Source of the DNA: Coriaria nepalensis
Lineage: Eukaryota > Streptophyta > Magnoliopsida > Cucurbitales > Coriariaceae
Assembly: GCA_027186245.1 (NCBI GenBank)
Contig: CP114483.1
Location: forward strand, 12,234,220 to 12,298,219
Length of the DNA: 64,000 nt
Direction: 5' to 3'
The notes under the pieces are model-generated. The model was not told the origin of the DNA and made no database searches. It saw nothing but the letters and a program-made list of their open reading frames with translations. Positions 1 through 62,700 of this stretch are shown one piece after another; position 1 is the stretch's first letter; each line of letters begins with the position of its first letter. The position numbers were made by a program, and so were the translations under genes.

Positions 1-1
1 G

Positions 2-36830: not shown

Positions 36831-37839
36831 CATGACTTTCGTGCATTACTTGCCGTTCATCGATTCAAGGCAACAACGCATTTGTTTAGCCTTAAAATCA
36901 TGTCATTGAGTCTCTTGTAGTCATGAAATCATTTTAATTAATCCGAACGAATTCTATTTTCGCCCTTCAAACATGATTTTCTTACATAACTTGCAATTAA
37001 TCTATTGAAGACAACAATGCATACCTTTAGCCTTAAAAAGCATGTCATTCAGTCTTTTCATATCATTAAATTGTTTGAAAGCACATCGAACCAATTATAT
37101 GTCTGCATTTAAAACACTACTTTCATGCATAACTTGCAAATGATCTATTGAAGAAAACTATGCATTTTTTTAGCCTTAAAGTCGTATTATTGCGTCTCTT
37201 TTGGTCATTAAATCGTTCAAAATCACTTCGTACGAAATTCGCAGTTTAAACATGACTTTCGTGCATTACTTGCCGTTCATCGTTCAAGGCAACAACGCAT
37301 TTGTTTAGCCTTAAAATCATGTCATTGAGTCTCTTGTAGTCATGAAATCATTTTAATTAATCCGAACGAATTCTATTTTCGCCCTTCAAACATGATTTTC
37401 TTACATAACTTGCAATTAATCTATTGAAGACAACAATGCATACCTTTAGCCTTAAAAAGCATGTCATTCAGTCTTTTCATGTCATTAAATTGTTTGAAAG
37501 CACATCGAACCAATTATATGTCTGCATTTAAAACACTACTTTCATGCATAACTTGCAAATGATCTATTCAAGAAAACTATGCATTTTTTTAGCCTTAAAG
37601 TCGTATTATTGCGTCTCTTTTGGTCATTAAATCATTCAAAATCACTTCGCACGAAATTCGCAGTTTAAACATGACTTTCGTGCATAACTTGCCGTTGCTC
37701 GATTCAAGGCAACAACGCATTTGTTTAGCCTTAAAATCATGTCATTGAGTCTCTTGTAGTCATGAAATCATTTTAATTAATCCGAACGAATTCTATTTTC
37801 GCCCTTCAAACATGATTTTCTTACATAACTTGCAATTAA

Positions 37840-40015
37840 TCTACTGAAGACAACAATGCATTCCTTTAGCCTTAAAAAGCATGTCATTCAGTCTTTTCAT
37901 GTCATTAAATTGTTTGAAAGCACATCGAACCAATTATATGTCTGCATTTAAAACACTACTTTCGTGCATAACTTGCAAATGATCTATTCAAGAAAACTAT
38001 GCATTTTTTTAGCCTTAAAGTCGTATTATTGCGTCTCTTTTGGTCATTAAATCATTCAAAATCACTTCGTACGAAATTCGCAGTTTAAACATGACTTTCG
38101 TGCATTACTTGCCGTTCATCCATTCAAGGCAACAACGCATTTGTTTAGCCTTAAAATCATGTCATTGAGTCTCTTGTAGTCATGAAATCATTTTAATTAA
38201 TCCGAACGAATTCTATTTTCGCCCTTCAAACATGATTTTCTTACATAACTTGCAATTAATCTATTGAAGACAACAATGCATTCCTTTAGCCTTAAAAAGC
38301 ATGTCATTCAATCTTTTCATGTCATAAAATTGTTTGAAAGAACATCGAACCAATTATATGTCTGCATTTAAAACACTACTTTCATGCATAACTTGCAAAT
38401 GATCTATTGAAGAAAACTATGCATTTTTTTAGCCTTAAAGTCGTATTATTGCGTCTCTTTTGGTCATTAAATCATTCAAAATCACTTCGTACGAAATTCG
38501 CAGTTTAAACATGACTTTCGTGCATAACTTGCCGTTGATCGATTCAAGGCAACAACGCATTTGTTTAGCCTTAAAATCATGTCATTGAGTCTCTTGTAGT
38601 CATGAAATCATTTTAATTAATCCGAACGAATTCTATTTTCGCCCTTCAAACATGATTTTCTTACATAACTTGCAATTAATCTATTGAAGACAACAATGCA
38701 TTCCTTTAGACTTAAAAAGCAAGTCATTCAGTCTTTTCATGTCATTAAATTGTTTGAAAGCGTATCGAACCAATTATATGTCTGCATTTAAAACACTACT
38801 TTCATGCATAACTTGCAAATGATCTATTCAAGAAAACTATGCATTGTTTTAGCCTTAAAGTCGTATTATTGCATCTCTTTTGGTCATTAAATCATTCAAA
38901 ATCACTTCGTACGAAATTCGCAGTTTAAACATGACTTTCGTGCATTACTTGCCGTTGATCGATTCAAGGCAACAACGCATTTGTTTTGCCTTAAAATCAT
39001 GTCGTTGAGTCTCTTGTAGTCATGAAATCATTTTAATTAATCCGAACGAATTCTATTTTCGCCCTTCAAACATGATTCTCTTACATAACTTGCAATTAAT
39101 CTATTGAAGACAACAATGCATTCCTTTAGCCTTAAAAAGCATCTCATTCAGTCTTTTCATGTCATTAAATTGTTTGAAAGCACATCGAACCAATTATATG
39201 TCTGCATTTAAAACACTACTTTCATGCATAACTTGCAAATGATCTATTCAAGAAAACTATGCATTTTTTTAGCCTTAAAGTCGTATTATTGCGTCTCTTT
39301 TGGTCATTAAATCATTCAAAATCACTTCGTACGAAATTCGCAGTTTAAACATGACTTTCGTGCATTACTTGCCGTTCATCCATTCAAGGCAACAACGCAT
39401 TTGTTTAGCCTTAAAATCATGTCATTGAGTCTCTTGTAGTCATGAAATCATTTTAATTAATCCGAACGAATTCTATTTTCGCCCTTCAAACATGATTTTC
39501 TTACATAACTTGCAATTAATCTATTCAAGAAAACAATGCATTCCTTTAGCCTTAAAAAGGATGTCATTCAATCTTTTCATGTCATTAAATTGTTTGAAAG
39601 AACATCGAACCAATTATATGTCTGCATTTAAAACACTACTTTCATGCATAACTTGCAAATGATCTATTGAAGAAAACTATGCATTTTTTTAGCCTTAAAG
39701 TCGTATTATTGCGTCTCTTTTGGTCATTAAATCATTCAAAATCACTTCGTACGAAATTCGCAGTTTAAACATGACTTTCGTGCATAACTTGCCGTTGATC
39801 GATTCAAGGCAACAACGCATTTGTTTAGCCTTAAAATCATGTCATTGAGTCTCTTGTAGTCATGAAATCATTTTAATTAATCCGAACGAATTCTATTTTC
39901 GCCCTTCAAACATGATTTTCTTACATAATTTGCAATTAATCTATTGAAGACAACAATGCATTCCTTTAGACTTAAAAAGCAAGTCATTCAGTCTTTTCAT
40001 GTCATTAAATTGTTT
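37840..40015. repeat. Three-monomer duplication, 1260-bp offset
   Basis: About 37,840-38,755 matches about 39,100-40,015 at exactly 1260 bp. Markers: TTCATCCATTCAAGG (38,117 and 39,377), GAAAGAACATCG (38,336 and 39,596), and TTTAGACTTAAAAAGCAAG (38,705 and 39,965). The copies differ by a few substitutions, such as GAAAGCGTATCG near 38,756 where the later copy changes to another haplotype. Confidence 0.8.
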
Positions 40016-43000
40016 GAAACCACGTCGAACCAATTCTACGTTTGCATTTAAAACACGACTTTCATGCATTACTTGCAAATGATCTACTGAAGAAAACTAT
40101 GCATTTTTTTAGACTTAAAGTCGTATTATTGCGTCTCTTTTAGTCATTAAATCATTCAATATCACTTCGTACGAAATTCGCAGTTTAAACACGACTTTCG
40201 TGCATTACTTGCCGTTGATCGATTCAAGGCAACAACGCATTTGTTTAGCCTTAAAATCATGTCATTGAGTCTCTTGTAGTCATGAAATCATTTTAATTAA
40301 TCCGAACGAATTCTATTTTCGCCCTTCAAACATGATTTTCTTACATAACTTGCAATTAATCTATTGAAGACAACAATGCATTCCTTTAGCCTTAAAAAGC
40401 ATGTCATTTAGTCTTTTCATGTCATTAAATTGTTTGAAAGCACATCGAACCAATTATATGTCTGCATTTAAAACACTGCTTTCATGCATAACTTGCAATG
40501 GATCTATTGAAGAAAACTATTCATTTTTTTAGCCTTAAAGTCGTATTATTGCGTCTCTTTTGGTCATTAAATCATTCAAAATCACTTCATACGAAATTCG
40601 CAGTTTAAACATGACTTTCGTGCATTACTTGCCGTTCATCGATTCAAGGCAACAACGCATTTGTTTAGCCTTAAAATCATGTCATTGAGTCTCTTGTAGT
40701 CATGAAATCATTTTAATTAATCCGAACGAATTCTATTTTCGCCCTTCAAACATGATTTTCTTACATAACTTGCAATTAATCTATTGAAGACAACAATGCA
40801 TTCCTTTAGACTTAAAAAGCATGTCATTCAGTCTTTTCATGTCATTAAATTGTTTGAAAGCACATCGAACCAATTATATGTCTGCATTTAAAACACTACT
40901 TTCATGCATAACTTGCAAATGATCTATTCAAGAAAACTATGCATTGTTTTAGCCTTAAAGTCGTATTATTGCATCTCTTTTGGTCATTAAATCATTCAAA
41001 ATCACTTCGTACGAAATTCGCAGTTTAAACATGACTTTCGTGCATTACTTGCCGTTGATCGATTCAAGGCAACAACGCATTTGTTTTGCCTTAAAATCAT
41101 GTCATTGAGTCTCTTGTAGTCATGAAATCATTTTAATTAATCCGAACGAATTCTATTTTCGCCCTTCAAACATGATTTTCTTACATAACTTGCAATTAAT
41201 CTATTGAAGACAACAATGCATTCCTTTAGCCTTAAAAAGCATGTCATTCAGTCTTTTCATGTCATTAAATTGTTTGAAAGCACATCGAACCAATTATATG
41301 TCTGCATTTAAAACACTACTTTCATGCATAACTTGCAATGGATCTATTGAAGAATACTATTCATTTTTTTAGCCTTAAAGTCGTATTATTGCGTCTCTTT
41401 TGGTCATTAAATCATTCAAAATCACTTCGTACGAAATTCGCAGTTTAAACATGACTTTCATGCATTACTTGCCGTTGATCGATCCAAGGCAACAGCGCAT
41501 TTGTTTAGCCCTAAAATCATGTCATTGAGTCACTTGTAGTCATCAAATCATTTTAATTAATCCGAACGAATTCTATTTTCGCCCTTCAAACATGATTTTC
41601 TTACATAACTTGCAATTAATCTATTGAAGACAACAATGCATTCCTTTAGCCTTAAAAAGCATGTCATTCCGTCTTTTCATGTCATTAAATTGTTTGAAAG
41701 CACGTCGAACCAATTCTACGTTTGCATTTAAAACACTACTTTCATGCATAACTTGCAAATGATCTATTCAAGAAAACTATGCATTTTTTTAGCCTTAAAG
41801 TCGTATTATTGCGTCTCTTTTGGTCATTAAATCATTCCAAATCACTTCGTACGAAATTCGCAGTTTAAACATGACTTTCGTGCATTACTTGCCGTTGATC
41901 GATTCAAGGCAACAACGCATTTGTTTAGCCTTAAAATCATGTCATTGAGTCTCTTGTAGTCATGAAATCATTTTAATTAATCCGAACGAATTCTATTTTC
42001 GCCCTTCAAACATGATTTTCTTACATAACTTGCAATTAATCTATTGAAGACAACAATGCATTCCTTTAGCCTTAAAAAGCATGTCATTCAGTCTTTTCAT
42101 GTCATTAAATTGTTTGAAAGCACGTCGAACCAATTCTACGTTTGCATTTAAAACACGACTTTCATGCATTAATTGCAAATGATCTATTGAAGAAAACTAT
42201 GCATTTTTTTAGCCTTAAAGTCGTATTAGTGCGTCTCTTTTGGTCATTAAATCATTCAAAATCACTTCGTACGAAATTCGCAGTTTAAACATGACTTTCG
42301 TGCATTACTTGCCGTTCATCGATTCAAGGCAACAACGCATTTGTTTAGCCTTAAAATCATGTCATTGAGTCTCTTGTAGTCATCAAATCATTTTAATTAA
42401 TCCGAACGAATTCTACTTTCGCCCTTCAAACATGATTTTCTTACATAACTTGCAATTAATCTATTGAAGACAACAATGCATTCCTTTAGCCTTAAAAAGC
42501 ATGTCATTCAGTCTTTTCATGTCATTAAATTGTTTGGAAGCACGTCGAACCAATTCTACGTTTGCATTTAAAACACGACTTTCATGCATTACTTGCAAAT
42601 GATCTACTGAAGAAAACTATGCATTTTTTTAGACTTAAAGTCGTATTATTGCGTCTCTTTTAGTCATTAAATTATTCAATATCACTTCGTACGAAATTCG
42701 CAGTTTAAACATGACTTTCGTGCATTACTTGCCGTTGATCGATTCAAGGCAACAACGCATTTGTTTAGCCTTAAAATCATGTCATAGAGTCTCTTGTAGT
42801 CATGAAATCATTTTAATTAATCCGAACGAATTCTGTTTTCGCCCATCAAACATGATTTTCTTACATAACTTGCAGTTAATCTATTGAAGACAACAATGCA
42901 TTCCTTTAGCCTTAAAAAACATGTCATTCAGTCTTTTCATGTCATTAAATTGTTTGAAAGCACATCGAACCAATTATATGTCTGCATTTGAAACACTACT

Positions 43001-44635
43001 TTCATGCATAACTTGCAAATGATCTATTGAAGAAAACTATGCATTTTTTTAGCCTTAAAGTCGTATTATTGCGTCTCTTTTGGTCATTAAATCATTCAAA
43101 ATCACTTCGTACGAAATTCGCAGTTTAAACATGACTTTCGTGCATTACTTGCCGTTCATCGATTCAAGGCAACAACGCATTTGTTTAGCCTTAAAATCAT
43201 GTCACAGAGTCTCTTGTAGTCATGAAATCATTTTAATTAATCCGAACGAATTCTGTTTTCGCCCATCAAACATGATTTTCTTACATAACTTGCAGTTAAT
43301 CTATTGAAGACAACAATGCATTCCTTTAGCCTTAAAAAACATGTCATTCAGTCTTTTCATGTCATTAAATTGTTTGAAAGCACATCGAACCAATTATATG
43401 TCTGCATTTGAAACACTACTTTCATGCATAACTTGCAAATGATCTATTGAAGAAAACTATGCATTTTTTTAGCCTTAAAGTCGTATTATTGCGTCTCTTT
43501 TGGTCATTAAATCATTCAAAATCACTTCGTACGAAATTCGCAGTTTAAACATGACTTTCGTGCATTACTTGCCGTTCATCGATTCAAGGCAACAACGCAT
43601 TTGTTTAGCCTTAAAATCATGTCACAGAGCCTCTTGTAGTCATGAAATCATTTTAATTAATCCGAACGAATTCTATTTTCGCCCTTCAAACATGATTTTC
43701 TTACATAACTTGCAATTAATCTATTGAAGACAACAATGCATTCCTTTAGCCTTAAAAAACATGTCATTCAGTCTTTTCATGTCATTAAATTGTTTGAAAG
43801 CACATCGAACCAATTATATGACTGCATTTAAAACACTACTTTCATGCATAACTTGCAAATGATCTATTGAAGAAAACTATGCATTTTTTTAGCCTTAAAG
43901 TCGTATTATTGCGTCTCTTTTGGTCATTAAATCATTCAAAATCACTTCGTACGAAATTCGCAGTTTAAACATGACTTCCGTGCATTACTTGCCGTTCATC
44001 GATTCAAGGCAACAACGCATTTGTTTCGCCTTAAAATCATGTCATTGAGTCTCTTGTAGTCATGAAATCATTTTAATTAATCCGAACGAATTCTGTTTTC
44101 GCCTTTCAAACATGATTTTCTTACATAACTTGCAATTAATCTATTGAAGACAACAATGCATTCCTTTAGCCTGAAAAAGCATGTCATTCAGTGTTTTCAT
44201 GTCATTAAATTGTTTGAAAGCACGTCGAACCAATTCTATGTTTGCATTTAAAACACGACTTTCATGCATTACTTGCAAATGATCTACTGAAGAAAACTAT
44301 GCATTTTTTTAGACTTAAAGTCGTATTATTGTGTCTCTTTTAGTCATTAAATCATTCAATATCACTTCGTATGAAATTCGCAGTTTAAACATGACTTTCG
44401 TGCATTACTTGCCGTTCATCGATTCAAGGCAACAACGCATTTGTTTAGCCTTAAAATCATGTCACAGAGCCTCTTATAGTCATGAAATCATTTTAATTAA
44501 TCCGAACGAATTCTATTTTCGCCCTTCAAACATGATTTTCTTACATAACTTGCAATTAATCTATTGAAGACAACAATGCATTCCTTTAGCCTTAAAAAAC
44601 ATGTCATTCAGTCTTTTCATGTTATTAAATTGTTT

Positions 44636-44652
44636 GAAAGCACTGAAAGCAC
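44636..44652 (+). repeat. 9-bp insertion marker, HOR unit 1, first
   Basis: GAAAGCACTGAAAGCAC replaces the usual single GAAAGCAC in subunit A. It looks like a slipped direct duplication of GAAAGCAC with a T between. It lies next to GTTATTAAATTG, another private variant. Confidence 0.93.
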
Positions 44653-46324
44653 GTCGAACCAATTCTACGTTTGCATTTAAAACACGACTTTCATGCATTA
44701 CTTGCAAATGATCTACTGAAGAAAACTATGCATTTTTTTAGACTTAAAGTCGTATTATTGCGTCTCTTTTAGTCATTAAATCATTCAATATCACTTCGTA
44801 CGAAATTCGCAGTTTAAACATGACTTTCGTGCATTACTTGCCGTTGATCGATTCAAGGCAACAACGCATTTGTTTAGCCTTAAAATCATGTCATTGAGTC
44901 TCTTGTAGTCATGAAATCATTTTAATTAATCCGAACGAATTCTATTTTCGCCCTTCAAACATGATTTTCTTACATAACTTGCAATTAATCTATTGAAGAC
45001 AACAATGCATTCCTTTAGCCTTAAAAAGCATGTCATTCAGTCTTTTCATGTCATTAAATTGTTTGAAAGCACATCGAACCAATTATATGTCTGCATTTAA
45101 AACACTACTTTCATGCATAACTTGCAATGGATCTATTGAAGAAAACTATTCATTTTTTTAGCCTTAAAGTCGTATTATTGCGTCTCTTTTGGTCATTAAA
45201 TCATTCAAAATCACTTCGTACGAAATTCGCAGTTTAAACATGACTTTCATGCATTACTTGCCGTTGATCGATCCAAGGCAACAGCGCATTTGTTTAGCCC
45301 TAAAATCATGTCATTGAGTCACTTGTAGTCATCAAATCATTTTAATTAATCCGAACGAATTCTATTTTCGCCCTTCAAACATGATTTTCTTACATAACTT
45401 GCAATTAATCTATTGAAGACAACAATGCATTCCTTTAGCCTTAAAAAGCATGTCATTCAGTCTTTTCATGTCATTAAATTGTTTGAAAGCACGTCGAACC
45501 AATTCTACGTTTGCATTTAAAACACTACTTTCATGCATAACTTGCAAATGATCTATTCAAGAAAACTATGCATTTTTTTAGCCTTAAAGTCGTATTATTG
45601 CGTCTCTTTTGGTCATTAAATCATTCCAAATCACTTCGTACGAAATTCGCAGTTTAAACATGACTTTCGTGCATTACTTGCCGTTGATCGATTCAAGGCA
45701 ACAACGCATTTGTTTAGCCTTAAAATCATGTCATTGAGTCTCTTGTAGTCATGAAATCATTTTAATTAATCCGAACGAATTCTATTTTCGCCCTTCAAAC
45801 ATGATTTTCTTACATAACTTGCAATTAATCTATTGAAGACAACAATGCATTCCTTTAGCCTTAAAAAGCATGTCATTCAGTCTTTTCATGTCATTAAATT
45901 GTTTGAAAGCACGTCGAACCAATTCTACGTTTGCATTTAAAACACGACTTTCATGCATTAATTGCAAGTGATCTATTGAAGAAAACTATGCATTTTTTTA
46001 GCCTTAAAGTCGTATTATTGTGTCTCTTTTGGTCATTAAATCATTCAAAATCACTTCGTACGAAATTCGCAGTTTAAACATGACTTTCGTGCATTACTTG
46101 CCGTTCATCGATTCAAGGCAACAACGCATTTGTTTAGCCTTAAAATCATGTCACAGAGCCTCTTGTAGTCATGAAATCATTTTAATTAAGCCGAACGAAT
46201 TCTATTTTCGCCCTTCAAACATGATTTTCTTACATAACTTGCAATTAATCTATTGAAGACAACAATGCATTCCTTTAGCCTTAAAAAACATGTCATTCAG
46301 TCTTTTCATGTTATTAAATTGTTT

Positions 46325-46341
46325 GAAAGCACTGAAAGCAC
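46325..46341 (+). repeat. 9-bp insertion marker, HOR unit 1, second
   Basis: Same GAAAGCACTGAAAGCAC, exactly 1689 bp after the first, in the duplicated copy of the monomer. Confidence 0.93.
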
Positions 46342-49300
46342 GTCGAACCAATTCTACGTTTGCATTTAAAACACGACTTTCATGCATTACTTGCAAATGA
46401 TCTACTGAAGAAAACTATGCATTTTTTTAGACTTAAAGTCGTATTATTGCGTCTCTTTTAGTCATTAAATCATTCAATATCACTTCGTACGAAATTCGCA
46501 GTTTAAACATGACTTTCGTGCATTACTTGCCGTTGATCGATTCAAGGCAACAACGCATTTGTTTAGCCTTAAAATCATGTCATTGAGTCTCTTGTAGTCA
46601 TGAAATCATTTTAATTAATCCGAACGAATTCTATTTTCGCCCTTCAAACATGATTTTCTTACATAACTTGCAATTAATCTATTGAAGACAACAATGCATT
46701 CCTTTAGCCTTAAAAAGCATGTCATTCAGTCTTTTCATGTCATTAAATTGTTTGAAAGCACATCGAACCAATTATATGTCTGCATTTAAAACACTACTTT
46801 CATGCATAACTTGCAATGGATCTATTGAAGAAAACTATTCATTTTTTTAGCCTTAAAGTCGTATTATTGCGTCTCTTTTGGTCATTAAATCATTCAAAAT
46901 CACTTCGTACGAAATTCGCAGTTTAAACATGACTTTCATGCATTACTTGCCGTTGATCGATCCAAGGCAACAGCGCATTTGTTTAGCCCTAAAATCATGT
47001 CATTGAGTCACTTGTAGTCATCAAATCATTTTAATTAATCCGAACGAATTCTATTTTCGCCCTTCAAACATGATTTTCTTACATAACTTGCAATTAATCT
47101 ATTGAAGACAACAATGCATTCCTTTAGCCTTAAAAAGCATGTCATTCAGTCTTTTCATGTCATTAAATTGTTTGAAAGCACGTCGAACCAATTCTACGTT
47201 TGCATTTAAAACACTACTTTCATGCATAACTTGCAAATGATCTATTCAAGAAAACTATGCATTTTTTTAGCCTTAAAGTCGTATTATTGCGTCTCTTTTG
47301 GTCATTAAATCATTCCAAATCACTTCGTACGAAATTCGCAGTTTAAACATGACTTTCGTGCATTACTTGCCGTTGATCGATTCAAGGCAACAACGCATTT
47401 GTTTAGCCTTAAAATCATGTCATTGAGTCTCTTGTAGTCATGAAATCATTTTAATTAATCCGAACGAATTCTATTTTCGCCCTTCAAACATGATTTTCTT
47501 ACATAACTTGCAATTAATCTATTGAAGACAACAATGCATTCCTTTAGCCTTAAAAAGCATGTCATTCAGTCTTTTCATGTCATTAAATTGTTTGAAAGCA
47601 CGTCGAACCAATTCTACGTTTGCATTTAAAACACGACTTTCATGCATTAATTGCAAATGATCTATTGAAGAAAACTATGCATTTTTTTAGCCTTAAAGTC
47701 GTATTATTGCGTCTCTTTTGGTCATTAAATCATTCAAAATCACTTCGTACGAAATTCGCAGTTTAAACATGACTTTCGTGCATTACTTGCCGTTCATCGA
47801 TTCAAGGCAACAACGCATTTGTTTAGCCTTAAAATCATGTCATTGAGTCTCTTGTAGTCATGAAATCATTTTAATTAATCCGAACGAATTCTACTTTCGC
47901 CCTTCAAACATGATTTTCTTACATAACTTGCAATTAATCTATTGAAGACAACAATGCATTCCTTTAGCCTTAAAAAGCATGTCATTCAGTCTTTTCATGT
48001 CATTAAATTGTTTGGAAGCACGTCGAACCAATTCTACGTTTGCATTTAAAACACGACTTTCATGCATTACTTGCAAATGATCTACTGAAGAAAACTATGC
48101 ATTTTTTTAGACTTAAAGTCGTATTATTGCGTCTCTTTTAGTCATTAAATCATTCAATATCACTTCGTACGAAATTCGCAGTTTAAACATGACTTTCGTG
48201 CATTACTTGCCGTTGATCGATTCAAGGCAACAACGCATTTGTTTAGCCTTAAAATCATGTCATAGAGTCTCTTGTAGTCATGAAATCATTTTAATTAATC
48301 CGAACGAATTCTGTTTTCGCCCATCAAACATGATTTTCTTACATAACTTGCAGTTAATCTATTGAAGACAACAATGCATTCCTTTAGCCTTAAAAAACAT
48401 GTCATTCAGTCTTTTCATGTCATTAAATTGTTTGAAAGCACATCGAACCAATTATATGTCTGGATTTGAAACACTACTTTCATGCATAACTTGCAAATGA
48501 TCTATTGAAGAAAACTATGCATTTTTTTAGCCTTAAAGTCGTATTATTGCGTCTCTTTTGGTCATTAAATCATTCAAAATCACTTCGTACGAAATTCGCA
48601 GTTTAAACATGACTTTCGTGCATTACTTGCCGTTCATCGATTCAAGGCAACAACGCATTTGTTTAGCCTTAAAATCATGTCACAGAGTCTCTTGTAGTCA
48701 TGAAATCATTTTAATTAATCCGAACGAATTCTGTTTTCGCCCATCAAACATGATTTTCTTACATAACTTGCAGTTAATCTATTGAAGACAACAATGCATT
48801 CCTTTAGCCTTAAAAAACATGTCATTCAGTCTTTTCATGTCATTAAATTGTTTGAAAGCACATCGAACCAATTATATGTCTGCATTTGAAACACTACTTT
48901 CATGCATAACTTGCAAATGATCTATTGAAGAAAACTATGCATTTTTTTAGCCTTAAAGTCGTATTATTGCGTCTCTTTTGGTCATTAAATCATTCAAAAT
49001 CACTTCGTACGAAATTCGCAGTTTAAACATGACTTTCGTGCATTACTTGCCGTTCATCGATTCAAGGCAACAACGCATTTGTTTAGCCTTAAAATCATGT
49101 CACAGAGCCTCTTGTAGTCATGAAATCATTTTAATTAATCCGAACGAATTCTATTTTCGCCCTTCAAACATGATTTTCTTACATAACTTGCAATTAATCT
49201 ATTGAAGACAACAATGCATTCCTTTAGCCTTAAAAAACATGTCATTCAGTCTTTTCATGTCATTAAATTGTTTGAAAGCACATCGAACCAATTATATGAC

Positions 49301-50113
49301 TGCATTTAAAACACTACTTTCATGCATAACTTGCAAATGATCTATTGAAGAAAACTATGCATTTTTTTAGCCTTAAAGTCGTATTATTGCGTCTCTTTTG
49401 GTCATTAAATCATTCAAAATCACTTCGTACGAAATTCGCAGTTTAAACATGACTTCCGTGCATTACTTGCCGTTCATCGATTCAAGGCAACAACGCATTT
49501 GTTTCGCCTTAAAATCATGTCATTGAGTCTCTTGTAGTCATGAAATCATTTTAATTAATCCGAACGAATTCTGTTTTCGCCTTTCAAACATGATTTTCTT
49601 ACATAACTTGCAATTAATCTATTGAAGACAACAATGCATTCCTTTAGCCTGAAAAAGCATGTCATTCAGTGTTTTCATGTCATTAAATTGTTTGAAAGCA
49701 CGTCGAACCAATTCTATGTTTGCATTTAAAACACGACTTTCATGCATTACTTGCAAATGATCTACTGAAGAAAACTATGCATTTTTTTAGACTTAAAGTC
49801 GTATTATTGTGTCTCTTTTAGTCATTAAATCATTCAATATCACTTCGTATGAAATTCGCAGTTTAAACATGACTTTCGTGCATTACTTGCCGTTCATCGA
49901 TTCAAGGCAACAACGCATTTGTTTAGCCTTAAAATCATGTCACAGAGCCTCTTATAGTCATGAAATCATTTTAATTAATCCGAACGAATTCTATTTTCGC
50001 CCTTCAAACATGATTTTCTTACATAACTTGCAATTAATCTATTGAAGACAACAATGCATTCCTTTAGCCTTAAAAAACATGTCATTCAGTCTTTTCATGT
50101 TATTAAATTGTTT

Positions 50114-50130
50114 GAAAGCACTGAAAGCAC
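50114..50130 (+). repeat. 9-bp insertion marker, HOR unit 2, first
   Basis: Same insertion exactly 5478 bp after 44,636, confirming the HOR period. Confidence 0.93.
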
Positions 50131-51802
50131 GTCGAACCAATTCTACGTTTGCATTTAAAACACGACTTTCATGCATTACTTGCAAATGATCTACTGAAGA
50201 AAACTATGCATTTTTTTAGACTTAAAGTCGTATTATTGCGTCTCTTTTAGTCATTAAATCATTCAATATCACTTCGTACGAAATTCGCAGTTTAAACATG
50301 ACTTTCGTGCATTACTTGCCGTTGATCGATTCAAGGCAACAACGCATTTGTTTAGCCTTAAAATCATGTCATTGAGTCTCTTGTAGTCATGAAATCATTT
50401 TAATTAATCCGAACGAATTCTATTTTCGCCCTTCAAACATGATTTTCTTACATAACTTGCAATTAATCTATTGAAGACAACAATGCATTCCTTTAGCCTT
50501 AAAAAGCATGTCATTCAGTCTTTTCATGTCATTAAATTGTTTGAAAGCACATCGAACCAATTATATGTCTGCATTTAAAACACTACTTTCATGCATAACT
50601 TGCAATGGATCTATTGAAGAAAACTATTCATTTTTTTAGCCTTAAAGTCGTATTATTGCGTCTCTTTTGGTCATTAAATCATTCAAAATCACTTCGTACG
50701 AAATTCGCAGTTTAAACATGACTTTCATGCATTACTTGCCGTTGATCGATCCAAGGCAACAGCGCATTTGTTTAGCCCTAAAATCATGTCATTGAGTCAC
50801 TTGTAGTCATCAAATCATTTTAATTAATCCGAACGAATTCTATTTTCGCCCTTCAAACATGATTTTCTTACATAACTTGCAATTAATCTATTGAAGACAA
50901 CAATGCATTCCTTTAGCCTTAAAAAGCATGTCATTCAGTCTTTTCATGTCATTAAATTGTTTGAAAGCACGTCGAACCAATTCTACGTTTGCATTTAAAA
51001 CACTACTTTCATGCATAACTTGCAAATGATCTATTCAAGAAAACTATGCATTTTTTTAGCCTTAAAGTCGTATTATTGCGTCTCTTTTGGTCATTAAATC
51101 ATTCCAAATCACTTCGTACGAAATTCGCAGTTTAAACATGACTTTCGTGCATTACTTGCCGTTGATCGATTCAAGGCAACAACGCATTTGTTTAGCCTTA
51201 AAATCATGTCATTGAGTCTCTTGTAGTCATGAAATCATTTTAATTAATCCGAACGAATTCTATTTTCGCCCTTCAAACATGATTTTCTTACATAACTTGC
51301 AATTAATCTATTGAAGACAACAATGCATTCCTTTAGCCTTAAAAAGCATGTCATTCAGTCTTTTCATGTCATTAAATTGTTTGAAAGCACGTCGAACCAA
51401 TTCTACGTTTGCATTTAAAACACGACTTTCATGCATTAATTGCAAGTGATCTATTGAAGAAAACTATGCATTTTTTTAGCCTTAAAGTCGTATTATTGTG
51501 TCTCTTTTGGTCATTAAATCATTCAAAATCACTTCGTACGAAATTCGCAGTTTAAACATGACTTTCGTGCATTACTTGCCGTTCATCGATTCAAGGCAAC
51601 AACGCATTTGTTTAGCCTTAAAATCATGTCACAGAGCCTCTTGTAGTCATGAAATCATTTTAATTAAGCCGAACGAATTCTATTTTCGCCCTTCAAACAT
51701 GATTTTCTTACATAACTTGCAATTAATCTATTGAAGACAACAATGCATTCCTTTAGCCTTAAAAAACATGTCATTCAGTCTTTTCATGTTATTAAATTGT
51801 TT

Positions 51803-51819
51803 GAAAGCACTGAAAGCAC
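51803..51819 (+). repeat. 9-bp insertion marker, HOR unit 2, second
   Basis: Same insertion 1689 bp after 50,114 and 5478 bp after 46,325. Confidence 0.93.
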
Positions 51820-54800
51820 GTCGAACCAATTCTACGTTTGCATTTAAAACACGACTTTCATGCATTACTTGCAAATGATCTACTGAAGAAAACTATGCAT
51901 TTTTTTAGACTTAAAGTCGTATTATTGCGTCTCTTTTAGTCATTAAATCATTCAATATCACTTCGTACGAAATTCGCAGTTTAAACATGACTTTCGTGCA
52001 TTACTTGCCGTTGATCGATTCAAGGCAACAACGCATTTGTTTAGCCTTAAAATCATGTCATTGAGTCTCTTGTAGTCATGAAATCATTTTAATTAATCCG
52101 AACGAATTCTATTTTCGCCCTTCAAACATGATTTTCTTACATAACTTGCAATTAATCTATTGAAGACAACAATGCATTCCTTTAGCCTTAAAAAGCATGT
52201 CATTCAGTCTTTTCATGTCATTAAATTGTTTGAAAGCACATCGAACCAATTATATGTCTGCATTTAAAACACTACTTTCATGCATAACTTGCAATGGATC
52301 TATTGAAGAAAACTATTCATTTTTTTAGCCTTAAAGTCGTATTATTGCGTCTCTTTTGGTCATTAAATCATTCAAAATCACTTCGTACGAAATTCGCAGT
52401 TTAAACATGACTTTCATGCATTACTTGCCGTTGATCGATCCAAGGCAACAGCGCATTTGTTTAGCCCTAAAATCATGTCATTGAGTCACTTGTAGTCATC
52501 AAATCATTTTAATTAATCCGAACGAATTCTATTTTCGCCCTTCAAACATGATTTTCTTACATAACTTGCAATTAATCTATTGAAGACAACAATGCATTCC
52601 TTTAGCCTTAAAAAGCATGTCATTCAGTCTTTTCATGTCATTAAATTGTTTGAAAGCACGTCGAACCAATTCTACGTTTGCATTTAAAACACTACTTTCA
52701 TGCATAACTTGCAAATGATCTATTCAAGAAAACTATGCATTTTTTTAGCCTTAAAGTCGTATTATTGCGTCTCTTTTGGTCATTAAATCATTCCAAATCA
52801 CTTCGTACGAAATTCGCAGTTTAAACATGACTTTCGTGCATTACTTGCCGTTGATCGATTCAAGGCAACAACGCATTTGTTTAGCCTTAAAATCATGTCA
52901 TTGAGTCTCTTGTAGTCATGAAATCATTTTAATTAATCCGAACGAATTCTATTTTCGCCCTTCAAACATGATTTTCTTACATAACTTGCAATTAATCTAT
53001 TGAAGACAACAATGCATTCCTTTAGCCTTAAAAAGCATGTCATTCAGTCTTTTCATGTCATTAAATTGTTTGAAAGCACGTCGAACCAATTCTACGTTTG
53101 CATTTAAAACACGACTTTCATGCATTAATTGCAAATGATCTATTGAAGAAAACTATGCATTTTTTTAGCCTTAAAGTCGTATTATTGCGTCTCTTTTGGT
53201 CATTAAATCATTCAAAATCACTTCGTACGAAATTCGCAGTTTAAACATGACTTTCGTGCATTACTTGCCGTTCATCGATTCAAGGCAACAACGCATTTGT
53301 TTAGCCTTAAAATCATGTCATTGAGTCTCTTGTAGTCATGAAATCATTTTAATTAATCCGAACGAATTCTACTTTCGCCCTTCAAACATGATTTTCTTAC
53401 ATAACTTGCAATTAATCTATTGAAGACAACAATGCATTCCTTTAGCCTTAAAAAGCATGTCATTCAGTCTTTTCATGTCATTAAATTGTTTGGAAGCACG
53501 TCGAACCAATTCTACGTTTGCATTTAAAACACGACTTTCATGCATTACTTGCAAATGATCTACTGAAGAAAACTATGCATTTTTTTAGACTTAAAGTCGT
53601 ATTATTGCGTCTCTTTTAGTCATTAAATCATTCAATATCACTTCGTACGAAATTCGCAGTTTAAACATGACTTTCGTGCATTACTTGCCGTTGATCGATT
53701 CAAGGCAACAACGCATTTGTTTAGCCTTAAAATCATGTCATAGAGTCTCTTGTAGTCATGAAATCATTTTAATTAATCCGAACGAATTCTGTTTTCGCCC
53801 ATCAAACATGATTTTCTTACATAACTTGCAGTTAATCTATTGAAGACAACAATGCATTCCTTTAGCCTTAAAAAACATGTCATTCAGTCTTTTCATGTCA
53901 TTAAATTGTTTGAAAGCACATCGAACCAATTATATGTCTGGATTTGAAACACTACTTTCATGCATAACTTGCAAATGATCTATTGAAGAAAACTATGCAT
54001 TTTTTTAGCCTTAAAGTCGTATTATTGCGTCTCTTTTGGTCATTAAATCATTCAAAATCACTTCGTACGAAATTCGCAGTTTAAACATGACTTTCGTGCA
54101 TTACTTGCCGTTCATCGATTCAAGGCAACAACGCATTTGTTTAGCCTTAAAATCATGTCACAGAGTCTCTTGTAGTCATGAAATCATTTTAATTAATCCG
54201 AACGAATTCTGTTTTCGCCCATCAAACATGATTTTCTTACATAACTTGCAGTTAATCTATTGAAGACAACAATGCATTCCTTTAGCCTTAAAAAACATGT
54301 CATTCAGTCTTTTCATGTCATTAAATTGTTTGAAAGCACATCGAACCAATTATATGTCTGCATTTGAAACACTACTTTCATGCATAACTTGCAAATGATC
54401 TATTGAAGAAAACTATGCATTTTTTTAGCCTTAAAGTCGTATTATTGCGTCTCTTTTGGTCATTAAATCATTCAAAATCACTTCGTACGAAATTCGCAGT
54501 TTAAACATGACTTTCGTGCATTACTTGCCGTTCATCGATTCAAGGCAACAACGCATTTGTTTAGCCTTAAAATCATGTCACAGAGCCTCTTGTAGTCATG
54601 AAATCATTTTAATTAATCCGAACGAATTCTATTTTCGCCCTTCAAACATGATTTTCTTACATAACTTGCAATTAATCTATTGAAGACAACAATGCATTCC
54701 TTTAGCCTTAAAAAACATGTCATTCAGTCTTTTCATGTCATTAAATTGTTTGAAAGCACATCGAACCAATTATATGACTGCATTTAAAACACTACTTTCA

Positions 54801-55591
54801 TGCATAACTTGCAAATGATCTATTGAAGAAAACTATGCATTTTTTTAGCCTTAAAGTCGTATTATTGCGTCTCTTTTGGTCATTAAATCATTCAAAATCA
54901 CTTCGTACGAAATTCGCAGTTTAAACATGACTTCCGTGCATTACTTGCCGTTCATCGATTCAAGGCAACAACGCATTTGTTTCGCCTTAAAATCATGTCA
55001 TTGAGTCTCTTGTAGTCATGAAATCATTTTAATTAATCCGAACGAATTCTGTTTTCGCCTTTCAAACATGATTTTCTTACATAACTTGCAATTAATCTAT
55101 TGAAGACAACAATGCATTCCTTTAGCCTGAAAAAGCATGTCATTCAGTGTTTTCATGTCATTAAATTGTTTGAAAGCACGTCGAACCAATTCTATGTTTG
55201 CATTTAAAACACGACTTTCATGCATTACTTGCAAATGATCTACTGAAGAAAACTATGCATTTTTTTAGACTTAAAGTCGTATTATTGTGTCTCTTTTAGT
55301 CATTAAATCATTCAATATCACTTCGTATGAAATTCGCAGTTTAAACATGACTTTCGTGCATTACTTGCCGTTCATCGATTCAAGGCAACAACGCATTTGT
55401 TTAGCCTTAAAATCATGTCACAGAGCCTCTTGTAGTCATGAAATCATTTTAATTAATCCGAACGAATTCTATTTTCGCCCTTCAAACATGATTTTCTTAC
55501 ATAACTTGCAATTAATCTATTGAAGACAACAATGCATTCCTTTAGCCTTAAAAAACATGTCATTCAGTCTTTTCATGTTATTAAATTGTTT

Positions 55592-55608
55592 GAAAGCACT
55601 GAAAGCAC
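55592..55608 (+). repeat. 9-bp insertion marker, partial HOR unit 3
   Basis: Same insertion 5478 bp after 50,114. The HOR pattern is lost about 200 bp further on and no second marker follows, so this is the truncated last unit. Confidence 0.93.
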
Positions 55609-55799
55609 GTCGAACCAATTCTACGTTTGCATTTAAAACACGACTTTCATGCATTACTTGCAAATGATCTACTGAAGAAAACTATGCATTTTTTTAGACT
55701 TAAAGTCGTATTATTGCGTCTCTTTTAGTCATTAAATCATTCAATATCACTTCGTACGAAATTCGCAGTTTAAACATGACTTTCGTGCATTACTTGCCG

Positions 55800-58700
55800 T
55801 TCATCGATTCAAGGCAACAACGCATTTGTTTAGCCTTAAAATCATGTCATTGAGTCTCTTGTAGTCATGAAATCATTTTAATTAATCCGAACGAATTCTA
55901 CTTTCGCCCTTCAAACATGATTTTCTTACATAACTTGCAATTAATCTATTGAAGACAACAATGCATACCTTTAGACTTAAAAAGCATGTCATTCAGTCTT
56001 TTCATGTCATTAAATTGTTTGAAAGCACGTCGAACCAATTCTACGTTTGCATTTAAAACACGACTTTCATGCATTACTTGCAAATGATCTACTGAAGAAA
56101 ACTATGCATTTTTTTAGACTTAAAGTCGTATTATTGCGTCTCTTTTAGTCATTAAATCATTCAAAATCACTTCGTACGAAATTCGCAGTTTAAACATGAC
56201 TTTCGTGCATAACTTGCCGTTGATCGATTCAAGGCAACAACGCATTTGTTTAGCCTTAAAATCATGTCATTGAGTCTCTTGTAGTCATGAAATCATTTTA
56301 ATTAATCCGAACGAATTCTATTTTCGCCGTTCAAACATGATTTTCTTACATAACTTGCAATTAATCTATTGAAGACAACAATGCATTCCTTTAGCCTGAA
56401 AAAGCATGTCATTCAGTCTTTTCATGTCATTAAATTGTTTGAAAGCACATCGAACCAATTATATGTCTGCATTTAAAACACTACTTTCATGCATAACTTG
56501 CAAATGATCTATTCAAGAAAACTATGCATTGTTTTAGCCTTAAAGTCATATTATTGCATCTCTTTTGGTCATTAAATCATTCAAAATCACTTCGTACGAA
56601 ATTCGCAGTTTAAACATGACTTTCGTGCATTACTTGCTGTTGATCGATTCAAGGCAACAACGCATTTGTTTAGCCTCAAAATCGTGTCATTGAGTCTCTT
56701 GTAGTCATGAAATCATTTTAATTAATCTGAACGAATTCTATTTTCCCCCTTCAAACATGATTTTCTTACATAACTTGCAATTAATCTATTGAAGACAACA
56801 ATGCATTCCTTTAGACTTAAAAAGCATGTCATTCAGTCTTTTCATGTCATTAAATTGTTTGAAAGCACATCGAACCAATTATATGTCTGCATTTAAAACA
56901 CTACTTTCATGCATAACTTGCAAATGATCTATTCAAGAAAACTATGCATTTTTTTAGCCTTAAAGTCGTATTATTGCGTCTCTTTTGGTCATTAAATCAT
57001 TCAAAATCACTTCGTACGAAATTCGCAGTTTAAACATGACTTTCGTGCATAACTTGCCGTTGATCGATTCAAGGCAACAACGCATTTGTTTAGCCTTAAA
57101 ATCATGTCATTGAGTCTCTTGTAGTCATGAAATCATTTTAATTAATCCGAACGAATTCTATTTTCGCCGTTCAAACATGATTTTCTTACATAACTTGCAA
57201 TTAATCTATTGAAGACAACAATGCATTCCTTTAGCCTGAAAAACCATGTCATTCAGTCTTTTCATGTCATTAAATTGTTTGAAAGCACATCGAACCAATT
57301 ATATGTCTGCATTTAAAACACTACTTTCATGCATAACTTGCAAATGATCTATTCAAGAAAACTATGCATTGTTTTAGCCTTAAAGTCATATTATTGCATC
57401 TCTTTTGGTCATTAAATCATTCAAAATCACTTCGTACGAAATTCGCAGTTTAAACATGACTTTCGTGCATTACTTGCCGTTGATCGATTCAAGGCAACAA
57501 CGCATTTGTTTAGCCTCAAAATCGTGTCATTGAGTCTCTTGTAGTCATGAAATCATTTTAATTAATCCGAACGAATTCTATTTTCCCCCTTCAAACATGA
57601 TTTTCTTACATAACTTGCAATTAATCTATTGAAGACAACAATGCATTCCTTTAGACTTAAAAAGCATGTCATTCAGTCTTTTCATGTCATTAAATTGTTT
57701 GAAAGCACATCGAACCAATTATATGTCTGCATTTAAAACACAACTTTCATGCATAACTTGCAATGGATCTATTGAAGAAAACTATTCATTTTTTAGCCTT
57801 AAAGTCGTATTATTGCGTCTCTTTTGGTCATTAAATCATTCAAAATCACTTCGTACGAAATTCGCAGTTTAAACATGACTTTCGTGCATTACTTGCCGTT
57901 CATCGATTCAAGGCAACAACGCATTTGTTTAGCCTTAAAATCATGTCACAGAGTCTCTTGTAGTCATGAAATCATTTTAATTAATCCGAACGAATTCTAT
58001 TTTCGCCCTTCAAACATGATTTTCTTACATAACTTGCAATTAATCTATTGAAGACAACAATGCATTCCTTTAGCCTGAAAAAGCATGTCATTCAGTCTTT
58101 TCATGTCATTAAATTGTTTGAAAGCACATCGAACCAATTATATGTCTGCATTTAAAACACTACTTTCATGCATAACTTGCAAATGATCTATTCAAGAAAA
58201 CTATGCATTGTTTTAGCCTTAAAGTCATATTATTGCATCTCTTTTGGTCATTAAATCATTCAAAATCACTTCGTACGAAATTCGCAGTTTAAACATGACT
58301 TTCGTGCATTACTTGCCGTTGATCGATTCAAGGCAACAACGCATTTGTTTAGCCTCAAAATCGTGTCATTGAGTCTCTTGTAGTCATGAAATCATTTTAA
58401 TTAATCCGAACGAATTCTATTTTCGCCGTTCAAACATGATTTTCTTACATAACTTGCAATTAATCTATTGAAGACAACAATGCATTCCTTTAGCCTGAAA
58501 AACCATGTCATTCAGTCTTTTCATGTCATTAAATTGTTTGAAAGCACATCGAACCAATTATATGTCTGCATTTAAAACACTACTTTCATGCATAACTTGC
58601 AAATGATCTATTCAAGAAAACTATGCATTGTTTTAGCCTTAAAGTCATATTATTGCATCTCTTTTGGTCATTAAATCATTCAAAATCACTTCGTACGAAA

Positions 58701-59714
58701 TTCGCAGTTTAAACATGACTTTCGTGCATTACTTGCCGTTGATCGATTCAAGGCAACAACGCATTTGTTTAGCCTCAAAATCGTGTCATTGAGTCTCTTG
58801 TAGTCATGAAATCATTTTAATTAATCCGAACGAATTCTATTTTCCCCCTTCAAACATGATTTTCTTACATAACTTGCAATTAATCTATTGAAGACAACAA
58901 TGCATTCCTTTAGACTTAAAAAGCATGTCATTCAGTCTTTTCATGTCATTAAATTGTTTGAAAGCACATCGAACCAATTATATGTCTGCATTTAAAACAC
59001 TACTTTCATGCATAACTTGCAATGGATCTATTGAAGAAAACTATTCATTTTTTAGCCTTAAAGTCGTATTATTGCGTCTCTTTTGGTCATTAAATCATTC
59101 AAAATCACTTCGTACGAAATTCGCAGTTTAAACATGACTTTCGTGCATTACTTGCCGTTCATCGATTCAAGGCAACAACGCATTTGTTTAGCCTTAAAAT
59201 CATGTCACAGAGTCTCTTGTAGTCATGAAATCATTTTAATTAATCCGAACGAATTCTATTTTCGCCCTTCAAACATGATTTTCTTACATAACTTGCAATT
59301 AATCTATTGAAGACAACAATGCATTCCTTTAGCCTTAAAAAACATGTCATTCAGTCTTTTCATGTCATTAAATTGTTTGAAAGCACATCGAACCAATTAT
59401 ATGTCTGCATTTAAAACATTACTTTCATGCATAACTTGCAATGGATCTATTGAAGAAAACTATTCATTTTTTAGCCTTAAAGTCGTATTATTGCGTCTCT
59501 TTTGGTCATTAAATCATTCAAAATCACTTCGTACGAAATTCGCAGTTTAAACATGACTTTCGGGCATAACTTGCCGTTGATCGATTCAAGGCAACAACGC
59601 ATTTGTTTAGCCTCAAAATCGTGTCATTGAGTCTCTTGTAGTCATGAAATCATTTTAATTAATCCGAACGAATTCTATTTTCCCCCTTCAAACATGATTT
59701 TCTTACATAACTTG
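55800..59714. repeat. Mosaic of two- and three-monomer repeats after the HOR
   Basis: A monomer type with CATTGTTTTAGCC, AAAGTCATATTATTGCATC and GCCTCAAAATCGTG appears at about 56,528, 57,368, 58,208 and 58,628. A type starting TTTAGACTTAAAAAGC appears at about 56,812, 57,652 and 58,911. The spacings of 840, 840 and 420 bp, and 840 and 1259 bp, show a dimer that became a trimer. The odd base comes from a T-tract one T shorter than the usual seven (57,785; again 59,045 and 59,465). The C variant TATTTTCCCCC is nearly private to this stretch. Confidence 0.8.
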
Positions 59715-62700
59715 CAATTAATCTATTGAAGACAACAATGCATTCCTTTAGCCTTAAAAAGCATGTCATTCAGTCTTTTCATGTCATTAAATTGTTTGAA
59801 AGCACATCGAACCAATTATATGTCTGCATTTAAAACACTACTTTCATGCATAACTTGCAATGGATCTATTGAAGAAAACTATTCATTTTTTTAGCCTTAA
59901 AGTCGTATTATTGCGTCTCTTTTGGTCATTAAATCATTCAAAATCACTTCGTACGAAATTCGCAGTTTAAACATGACTTTCGTGCATTACTTGCCGTTCA
60001 TCGATTCAAGGCAACAACGCATTTGTTTAGCCTTAAAATCATGTCACAGAGTCTCTTGTAGTCATGAAATCATTTTAATTAATCCGAACGAATTCTATTT
60101 TCGCCCTTCAAACATGATTTTCTTACATAACTTGCAATTAATCTATTGAAGACAACAATGCATTCCTTTAGCCTTAAAAAACATGTCATTCAGTCTTTTC
60201 ATGTCATTAAATTGTTTGAAAGCACATCGAACCAATTATATGTCTGCATTTAAAACATTACTTTCATGCATAACTTGCAAATGATCTATTGAAGAAAACT
60301 ATGCATTTTTTTAGCCTTAAAGTCGTATTATTGCGTCTCTTTTGGTCATTAAATCATTCAAAATCACTTCGTACGAAATTCGCAGTTTAAACATGACTTT
60401 CGTGCATAACTTGCCGTTGATCGATTCAAGGCAACAATGCATTTGTTTAGCCTTAAAATCATGTCATTGAGTCTCTTGTAGTCATGAAATCATTTTAATT
60501 AATCTGAACGAATTCTATTTTCGCCCTTCAAACATGATTTTCTTACATAACTTGCAATTAATCTATTGAAGACAACAATGCATTCCTTTTGCCTGAAAAA
60601 GCATGTCATTCAGTCTTTTCATGTCATTAAATTGTTTGAAAGCACATCGAACCAATTATATGTCTGCACTTAAAACATTACTTTCATGCATAACTTGCAA
60701 ATGATCTATTGAAGAAAACTATGCATTTTTTTAGCCTTAAAGTCGTATTATTGCGTCTCTTTTGGTCATTAAATCATTCAAAATCACTTCGTACGAAATT
60801 CGCAGTTTAAAAATGACTTTCGTGCATAACTTGCCGTTGATCGATTCAAGGCAACAACGCATTTGTTTAGCCTTAAAATCATGTCATTGAGTCTCTTGTA
60901 GTCATGAAATCATTTTAATTAATCCGAACGAATTCTATTTTCGCCGTTCAAACATGATTTTCTTACATAACTTGCAATTAATCTATTGAAGACAACAATG
61001 CATTCCTTTAGCCTTAAAAAACATGTCATTCAGTCTTTTCATGTCGTTAAATTGTTTTGAAAGCACATCGAACCAATTATATGTCTGCATTTAAAACACT
61101 ACTTTCATGCATAACTTGCAAATGATCTATTCAAGAAAACTATGCATTTTTGTAGCCTTAAAGTCGTATTATTGCGTCTCTTTTGGTCATTAAATCATTC
61201 AAAATCACTTCGTACGAAATTCGCAGTTTAAACATGACTTTCGTGCATTACTTGCCGTTCATCGATTCAAGGCAACAACGCATTTGTTTAGCCTTAAAAT
61301 CATGTCACAGAGTCTCTTGTAGTCATGAAATCATTTTAATTAATCCGAACGAATTCTATTTTCGCCCTTCAAACATGATTTTCTTACATAACTTGCAATT
61401 AATCAATTGAAGACAACAATGCATTCCTTTAGCCTTAAAAAACATGTCATTCAGTCTTTTCATGTCATTAAATTGTTTTGAAAGCACATCGAACCAATTA
61501 TATGTCTGCATTTAAAACACTACTTTCATGCATAACTTGCAAATGATCTATTCAAGAAAACTATGCATTTTTTTAGCCTTAAAGTCGTATTATTGCGTCT
61601 CTTTTGGTCATTAAATCATTCAAAATCACTTCGTACGAAATTCGCAGTTTAAACATGACTTTCGTGCATTACTTGCCGTTCATCGATTCAAGGCAACAAC
61701 GCATTTGTTTAGCCTTAAAATCATGTCACAGAGTCTCTTGTAGTCATGAAATCATTTTAATTAATCCGAACGAATTCTATTTTCGCCCTTCAAACATGAT
61801 TTCCTTACATAACTTGCAATTAATCTATTGAAGACAACAATGCATTCCTTTAGCCTTAAAAAACATGTCATTCAGTCTTTTCATGTCATTAAATTGTTTG
61901 AAAGCACATCGAACCAATTATATGTCTGCATTTAAAACACTACTTTCATGCATAACTTGCAAATAATCTATTGAAGAAAACTATGCATTTTTTTAGCCTT
62001 AAAGTCGTATTATTGCGTCTCTTTTGGTCATTAAATCATTCAAAATCACTTCGTACGAAATTCGCAGTATCAACATGACTTTCGTGCATTACTTGCCGTT
62101 CATCGATTCAAGGCAACAACGCATTTCTTTAGGCTTAAAATCATGTCATTGAGTCTCTTGTAGTCATGAAATCATTTTAATTAATCCGAACGAATTCTGT
62201 TTTCGCCCTTCAAACATGATTTTCTTACATAACTTGCAATTAATCTATTGAAGACAACAATGCATTCCTTTTGCCTGAAAAAGCATGTCATTCAGTCTTT
62301 TCATGTCATTAAATTGTTTGAAAGCACATCGAACCAATTATATGTCTGCATTTAAAACACTACTTTCATGCATAACTTGCACATGATCTATTAAAGAAAA
62401 CTATGCATTTTTTTAGCCTTAAAGTCGTATTACTGCGTCTCTTTTGGTCATTAAATCATTCAAAATCACTTCGTACGAAATTCGCAGTTTAAACATGACT
62501 TTCGTGCATAACTTGCCGTTGATCGATTCAAAGCAACAACGCATTTGTTTAGCCTTAAAATCATGTCATTGAGTCTCTTGTAGTCATGAAATCATTTTAA
62601 TTAATCCGAACGAATTCTATTTTTGCCCTTCAAACATGATTTTCTTACATAACTTGCAATTAATCAATTGAAGACAACAATGCATTCCTTTAGCCTTAAA

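What the first reader, a model, noticed from the sequence alone, without database searches (positions are those of the whole stretch)
41090..55800. Recent 13-monomer higher-order repeat with an exact 5478-bp period
Two complete and two partial units line up base for base at 5478 bp, including five 9-bp insertions at 44,636, 46,325, 50,114, 51,803 and 55,592. Only a handful of substitutions separate the units by eye, far fewer than separate neighbouring monomers. In centromeric satellites, long near-identical HORs mark the most recently expanded part of an array (known for human alpha satellite); applying that here is inference.
Basis: partly seen in the sequence, partly recalled or inferred. 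Interest (0 to 1): 0.75.

Follow-up and report, generated by a model that had tools for sequence, protein, structure and literature searches.

The report
Newly duplicated block in plant satellite
A 15-kb stretch of a plant's probably centromeric satellite DNA holds a block repeated in the order X-Y-X-Y-X, and its few sequence differences suggest how a higher-order repeat can be born by one or two out-of-step exchanges; the process is known, but this is a clean example of it.

Summary
At a lag of exactly 5478 bp, window 40883-50606 matches 46361-56084 with 28 mismatches in 9724, including a 6968-bp run with none. The five 9-bp insertions (exact TGAAAGCAC duplications) are real, and their exact 25-base junction occurs five times in the 316-Mb assembly, all here.

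The anatomy is finer than "13-mer". The tract is X-Y-X-Y-X: X is a 9-mer of 420-bp units (3789 bp) and Y a 4-mer (1689 bp) that looks like X with five monomers deleted. The middle X equals the left part of X3 plus the right part of X1 with 0 mismatches in 3789 bp. One in-register unequal exchange, or out-of-register break-induced replication, turning XYX into XYXYX explains this. A false extra assembly-graph loop would look the same; reads longer than 12.4 kb would decide.

The tract is about 2.7 units, not an expanded HOR array. In the 264 kb examined, identity outside it is flat at lags of 1 to 30 monomers, and other local repeats are comparably homogeneous. The host is an unidentified plant with giant blocks of this ~142-bp satellite family. 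"Centromeric" is likely but untested.

Verdict: real, recent, ordinary mechanism, unusually legible.

The parts
1..64000 (+). 420-bp satellite array filling the whole window; each 420-bp unit is an A-B-C trimer of ~144/137/139-bp sub-repeats
   Evidence: TRF 4-63999, period 420, 96% matches; 152 complete monomers in the window, mean 97.2% to consensus; sub-repeats
41001..55938 (+). X-Y-X-Y-X tract, the '5478-bp higher-order repeat'; near-identity starts just after 41000
   Evidence: lag-5478 and lag-10956 diagonals; monomer cluster string
41194..44982 (+). X1: nine-monomer unit, 3789 bp
44983..46671 (+). Y1: four-monomer unit, 1689 bp; looks like X lacking 2100 bp (five monomers)
46672..50460 (+). 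X2: hybrid, identical to X3-left joined to X1-right (0 mismatches in 3789)
   Evidence: three breakpoints tested
50461..52149 (+). Y2: identical to Y1 (0 differences in 1689)
52150..55938 (+). X3: nine-monomer unit, 9 differences from X1
42986..44475 (+). interval (X1 coordinates) within which the recent exchange must have switched; X1, X2 and X3 identical here
   Evidence: diagnostic sites 42985 and 44476
44635..44643 (+). 9-bp insertion 1 (TGAAAGCAC tandem duplication), in X1
46324..46332 (+). 9-bp insertion 2, in Y1
50113..50121 (+). 9-bp insertion 3, in X2
51802..51810 (+). 9-bp insertion 4, in Y2
55591..55599 (+). 9-bp insertion 5, in X3
45823..46242 (+). monomer '45' in Y1: left part closest to X monomer 38, right part to 43 (or 41); presumed deletion joint

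Best explanation
This is a young, local higher-order repeat in a plant satellite array, made by ordinary short-range out-of-register recombination. Inferred history: (1) a 9-bp slippage duplication marks one monomer; (2) a nine-monomer block X carrying it is duplicated (X X); (3) an out-of-register exchange between monomer 38 of the second X and monomer 43 of the first yields X Y X, Y lacking five monomers; (4) very recently, an in-register unequal exchange between X1 and X3 (of sister chromatids, most simply), or break-induced replication restarting one XY unit back, yields X Y X Y X. Shown here: the XYXYX order, the hybrid nature of X2, the private markers and the absence of differences between the two newest copies. 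Inferred: the order of events, the deletion polarity and the molecular pathway. The tract is probably neutral array turnover in what is likely the centromeric satellite; no function beyond that of the array is indicated.
For: The monomer cluster string reads 36-44*, 36 37 45 44*, 36-44*, 36 37 45 44*, 36-44*. Lengths add up: 3789 + 1689 = 5478, and 3789 - 1689 = 2100 = 5 x 420. X2 = X3-left + X1-right with 0 mismatches for each of three breakpoints tested across 42986-44475. A base at 42985 absent from the 583 monomers outside the tract is shared by X2 and X3 only, and a rare one at 44476 (10 of 583) by X1 and X2 only. Y1 = Y2 exactly. Y fits X3-left + X1-right minus 2100 bp best of four parent choices (4 vs 5, 7, 8 mismatches). 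The exact 9-bp junction occurs nowhere else in the assembly. Near-identical twins are local in the 264 kb read: 408 of 619 monomers have one, median distance 6 monomers vs 76 after shuffling (200 shuffles, which did not require equal length). Deletion of monomers from a ten-mer HOR giving four- and six-mer variants is described for human chromosome 5 (PMC11062924, passages seen). Unequal exchange and BIR as models of HOR formation: PMC8997354 (passages seen).
Against: The parents of monomer 45 are not unique. With free choice among the other monomers, another pair fits with 1 mismatch, and 42 of 64 twinless monomers tested can be explained by some two-parent join with 3 or fewer mismatches. 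For pairs five monomers apart, 0.42% of about 20,000 random draws fit as well as 38/43 (3 mismatches), so the deletion joint is supported, not proved; the right part of 45 fits monomer 41 as well as 43 of X3 (1 mismatch each). The parent choice for Y rests on 4 vs 5 mismatches. Unequal exchange, BIR and gene conversion are not distinguishable from one haplotype. [quoted passage not shown] Copy number rests on the assembly.
Confidence: 0.74

Rival explanations
1. Assembly artefact: the true sequence is X Y X, and the assembler walked the loop between the identical 1490-bp stretches of X1 and X3 once too often (or miscounted the loops).
For: A false second traversal would give exactly what is seen: zero differences between the loops and a single clean switch in X2. 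The assembly is scaffolded, with 13 of 20 scaffold lengths multiples of 2500, so it is not a finished one. No reads are available here.
Against: The shared exact stretch is only 1490 bp and X1 and X3 differ at 9 sites in 3789; accurate reads of 10 kb or more would resolve it (general knowledge). The contig runs at least 254,966 bases through satellite without a gap, which suggests long reads. Other zero-difference tandem copies of different periods occur along it; these do not discriminate, since they could be of either kind.
Confidence: 0.14
2. Array-wide or chromosome-wide HOR of which the window shows one segment (the alpha-satellite-like case of a long homogenised HOR domain).
For: 5478-bp periodicity with very high identity locally; satellites of the same family occur as other n-mers on other scaffolds.
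Against: The 9-bp junction is found 5 times only. Outside the tract identity is flat, 0.963-0.967, at lags 1-30 monomers, with no rise at 13 (0.9644).
Confidence: 0.03
3. Patchwise gene conversion rather than duplication: older copies at 13-monomer spacing were recently overwritten by one another.
For: Conversion homogenises neighbours and leaves no length change; X1, X2, X3 share long identical tracts.
Against: Conversion would need a tract of several kb with a single switch point, and the X Y X Y X order must already exist; the one-switch pattern is simpler as one exchange.
Confidence: 0.09

Closest known systems
Human alpha satellite D5Z2 HOR variants (ten-mer giving 4-mer and 6-mer variants by deletion; PMC11062924, passages seen)
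   Same: A longer HOR unit accompanied by a shorter variant explained by loss of whole monomers
   Different: Different sequence, plant host, <3 compound units here instead of large arrays; no kinetochore data here; no CENP-B box (motif recalled) in 254,966 bp
Arabidopsis CEN178 arrays (described in review PMC11579429, passages seen)
   Same: Plant satellite of nucleosome-scale repeat with local homogenisation and private variants
   Different: Basic repeat ~142 bp organised first as an ABC trimer of 420 bp; no CENH3 data here
Salicaceae tandem arrays Palv156 (centromeric) and Palv148/Salix180 (non-centromeric) (PMC12046899, passages seen)
   Same: Plant satellites with HOR blocks, some centromeric and some not

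Membership tests
Higher-order repeat (HOR) in a satellite array | A set of distinguishable monomers repeated in the same order | tested here: met
   XYXYX monomer string; lag-13 identity 0.9968 vs 0.9676 at lag 1
Higher-order repeat (HOR) in a satellite array | Copies of the unit much more alike than monomers within it | tested here: met
   Y1/Y2 0 differences, X1/X3 9 in 3789; neighbours ~3% apart
Higher-order repeat (HOR) in a satellite array | Many tandem copies forming a homogenised domain | tested here: not met
   About 2.7 units only; junction found 5 times in the assembly
Functional centromeric satellite | Bound by CENH3 | not testable with these tools
   No ChIP or CUT&Tag data
Functional centromeric satellite | One large array per chromosome, same family on several chromosomes | tested here: inconclusive
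   Satellite in 12 of 20 samples on C3 (every sample from 9.0 to 26.7 Mb), 8 of 10 on C1, 1 of 10 on C10 (66% to the window consensus); other scaffolds not sampled
Alpha satellite (primate) | ~171-bp monomer, CENP-B box in part of the monomers, primate host | tested here: not met
   ~142-bp repeat; 0 CENP-B boxes; plant desaturase genes in the genome
Most recently expanded layer of the array | Youngest, most homogeneous part of the array | tested here: inconclusive
   Longest exact repeat in 264 kb, but another local block has a higher mean best local match; most of the C3 block could not be read

The most novel reading that the evidence does not exclude
The window catches an alphoid-like, four-level HOR system in a plant (142-bp sub-repeat, 420-bp ABC trimer, 9-mer X with deletion variant Y, XY compound) at the step where a new HOR is being born in a giant array, with the two founding exchanges readable at base level. 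In the same genome, different blocks carry 2-, 3-, 4- and 5-mers of the same ~142-bp family, much as human chromosomes carry their own alpha-satellite HORs.
Probability: 0.35. Interest if true: 0.5.

Novelty: new member of a known kind. Interest (0 to 1): 0.33.

Why it matters
How HORs start is debated: unequal exchange, break-induced replication or conversion (PMC8997354, PMC11579429, passages seen). Where HORs have many copies the first steps are likely to be overwritten (inference). Here the copies are few and carry private markers, so the first steps can be written down and tested in other individuals: haplotypes with XX, XYX or XYXYX should exist. The 9-bp junction is a ready single-locus marker inside an array that is otherwise hard to map. 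The mechanism itself is already known.

Tried and rejected
Rejected: one array-wide 13-mer HOR (flat identity at lags 1-30 outside the tract); three full copies of 5478 (the diagonal is 9724, less than 10956); a clean, unique 38/43 origin for monomer 45 (supported at 0.42% among pairs five apart, but other parents fit too); CENP-B boxes (0; motif recalled); Rfam families at the gathering score (0 matches in the window); DNA relatives in the plasmid collection (none for a 1261-base piece).

Led nowhere: naming the host. My first guess, castor bean (recalled assembly size), was not supported: in the 120 best rows listed per search, the desaturase proteins reach at most 89% (Ricinus 85%) and 91% identity, spread over many flowering plants, without one close relative; phmmer against the PDB did not settle it. 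Salicaceae as host is also unsupported (Populus and Salix 80-82%, 87-89%). Searching papers for the satellite's own letters found nothing (0 papers); searches by repeat length found no matching satellite (0 papers, 11 of 12 listed, listing only); some searches were read as listings, and four papers by passages. A test of chromosome-specific n-mers by whole-genome search with L087 and L073 did not complete.

The first decomposition of the 264 kb slipped phase after breaks and was replaced; 4 of 623 units of odd length (480) at breaks were dropped before the identity matrix (619 kept).
Full report
Setting. The window lies at G000:C3:12234220-12298219 of a 316.5-Mb assembly in 20 scaffolds. The host is a plant: it has stearoyl-ACP desaturase genes whose best listed relatives, at up to 89% and 91% identity, are spread over many flowering plants, mostly eudicots (120 rows listed each), and CCCTAAA telomere-like starts on C6 and C20. 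The species is not identified. The 64 kb are one 420-bp satellite; 152 complete monomers of 419-429 bp follow one another and average 97.2% identity to the consensus. Each 420-bp unit is three sub-repeats A, B, C of about 144, 137 and 139 bp, 75-79% alike.

Observation. The 5478-bp period is exact. The diagonal covers 40883-50606 against 46361-56084 with 28 mismatches in 9724 bp, 18 of them in the decaying ends; 6968 bp in a row are identical. The five 9-bp insertions are exact duplications of TGAAAGCAC at the same monomer column; the exact junction is found five times in the assembly and all five are here. Monomer shuffling gives runs of at most 2 against 22 observed (300 shuffles).

Anatomy. 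Clustering monomers by single linkage at no more than 2 differences gives the order 36-37-38-39-40-41-42-43-44*, then 36-37-45-44*, then the nine, the four and the nine again (the star marks the insertion). So the tract is X Y X Y X, with X = 3789 bp and Y = 1689 bp. The '13-mer' is the compound XY. Y differs from X by 2100 bp, five monomers.

How it arose. X1 and X3 differ at 9 of 3789 sites; X2 differs from X1 at 6 (left side) and from X3 at 3 (right side). X2 equals X3-left plus X1-right with no mismatch for the three breakpoints tested between 42986 and 44475. A base at 42985 (0 of 583 monomers outside the tract) is shared by X2 and X3; one at 44476 (10 of 583) by X1 and X2. That is the signature of one in-register unequal exchange between X1 and X3 of an X Y X precursor. 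Break-induced replication restarting one unit back gives the same product. Y is best explained as X3-left joined to X1-right with five monomers lost (4 mismatches in 1689; other parent pairs 5, 7, 8), as an out-of-register exchange between the two members of an X X precursor would give. This second inference is weaker: monomer 45 can also be assembled from other monomers.

Age (inference). No difference in 5478 bp gives an upper 95% limit of about 3/5478 = 0.055% divergence. With a recalled Arabidopsis rate of 7e-9 per site per generation that is below roughly 40,000 generations, if conversion has not erased differences. X1 and X3 (0.24%) separated earlier.

Is it the youngest part of the array? 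In the 264 kb read, local near-identity is common: 408 of 619 monomers have a twin with at most 2 differences, at a median distance of 6 monomers against 76 when shuffled. Of 30 exact repeat pairs of 1260 bp or more, in 20 merged intervals, 6 belong to this tract. This tract has the longest (6968 bp; next 2943), but a 3-mer block 60-70 kb away has a higher mean best local match (0.9996 vs 0.9983 and 0.9965). Outside the tract identity is flat over lags 1 to 30 (0.963-0.967): no array-wide HOR in this stretch.

Is it centromeric? On C3, 12 of 12 samples between 9.0 and 26.7 Mb are satellite over their whole length and none of the 7 readable samples outside is (20 samples, 1 unreadable; two of the 12, at 12.7 and 13.1 Mb, were placed in or next to the stretch already known). 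All 12 keep the ABC order, one with a sub-repeat missing or shortened, on both strands. On C1, 8 of 10 samples are satellite: 2 ABC-type, 6 of the same ~142-bp family (68-71% to the window consensus) with periods 710, 709, 429, 431, 426 and 284 bp. On C10, 1 of 10 samples is satellite, with a 569-bp period and only 66% identity. A 39-base word with up to 3 mismatches hits 114,313 places; at about 2.7 hits per kb in ABC-type samples (55 in 20.4 kb) this means about 42 Mb. A large block in mid-scaffold and a family shared by scaffolds fit a centromeric satellite, but there is no CENH3 evidence, and abundant plant satellites can lie elsewhere (PMC12046899, passages seen, including part of the abstract). 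The mixed strands on C3 and C1, the mixed n-mers on C1, and 13 of 20 scaffold lengths in multiples of 2500 (that this is a scaffolding signature is recalled) also leave room for satellite contigs gathered by scaffolding.

Assembly caveat. An extra walk round the loop between the identical 1490-bp parts of X1 and X3 would produce the same sequence. Only reads above about 12.4 kb (42985 to 55432) can exclude it.

Known or new. HORs, their deletion variants and their origin by unequal exchange or BIR are known (PMC8997354, PMC11062924, PMC11579429; passages seen). [quoted passage not shown] the plant review doubts unequal meiotic crossover as a general mechanism and prefers conversion or inter-sister exchange. 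An inter-sister exchange or BIR is compatible with what is seen here, where there are fewer than three units. The specific satellite was not found in print, which is weak evidence since the host is unknown.

Noticed in passing
G000:C3 9.0-26.7 Mb; C1 9-51 Mb (samples): Giant satellite blocks: 12 of 12 C3 samples and 8 of 8 C1 samples in these ranges are satellite over their whole length, on changing strands; ABC-type alone is estimated at about 42 Mb genome-wide. Real giant arrays or satellite contigs gathered by scaffolding.
   Followed up: partly
L073, L078, L079, L077, L087 vs window: Same ~142-bp family in different n-mers: 710 bp (5), 284 (2), 426-431 (3), 569 (4), next to the 420-bp ABC trimer, reminiscent of chromosome-specific alpha-satellite HORs.
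   Followed up: partly
G000:C3:12203759-12213429 (L024, L023): A 1262-bp three-monomer repeat in several copies, with a higher mean best local match than the reported HOR.
   Followed up: partly
G000:C3 near 12304021, 12313067, 12324215 (L009-L011): Three phase breaks with the same 167-base offset, spaced by 9046 and 11148 bp, which are also lags of long near-identical copies: another local HOR with its own junction marker.
   Followed up: partly
window 42874 and 43294: Monomers 40 and 41 of X are 99.3% alike, an older duplication inside X.
   Followed up: no
L029 (C5:4169740-4170804): Desaturase-like reading frame with three in-frame stops, probably a pseudogene.
   Followed up: no
L036 and L041 (starts of C5 and C10): Scaffold starts of G-rich GTGGGG-like low-complexity repeats, 78% GC.
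   Followed up: no
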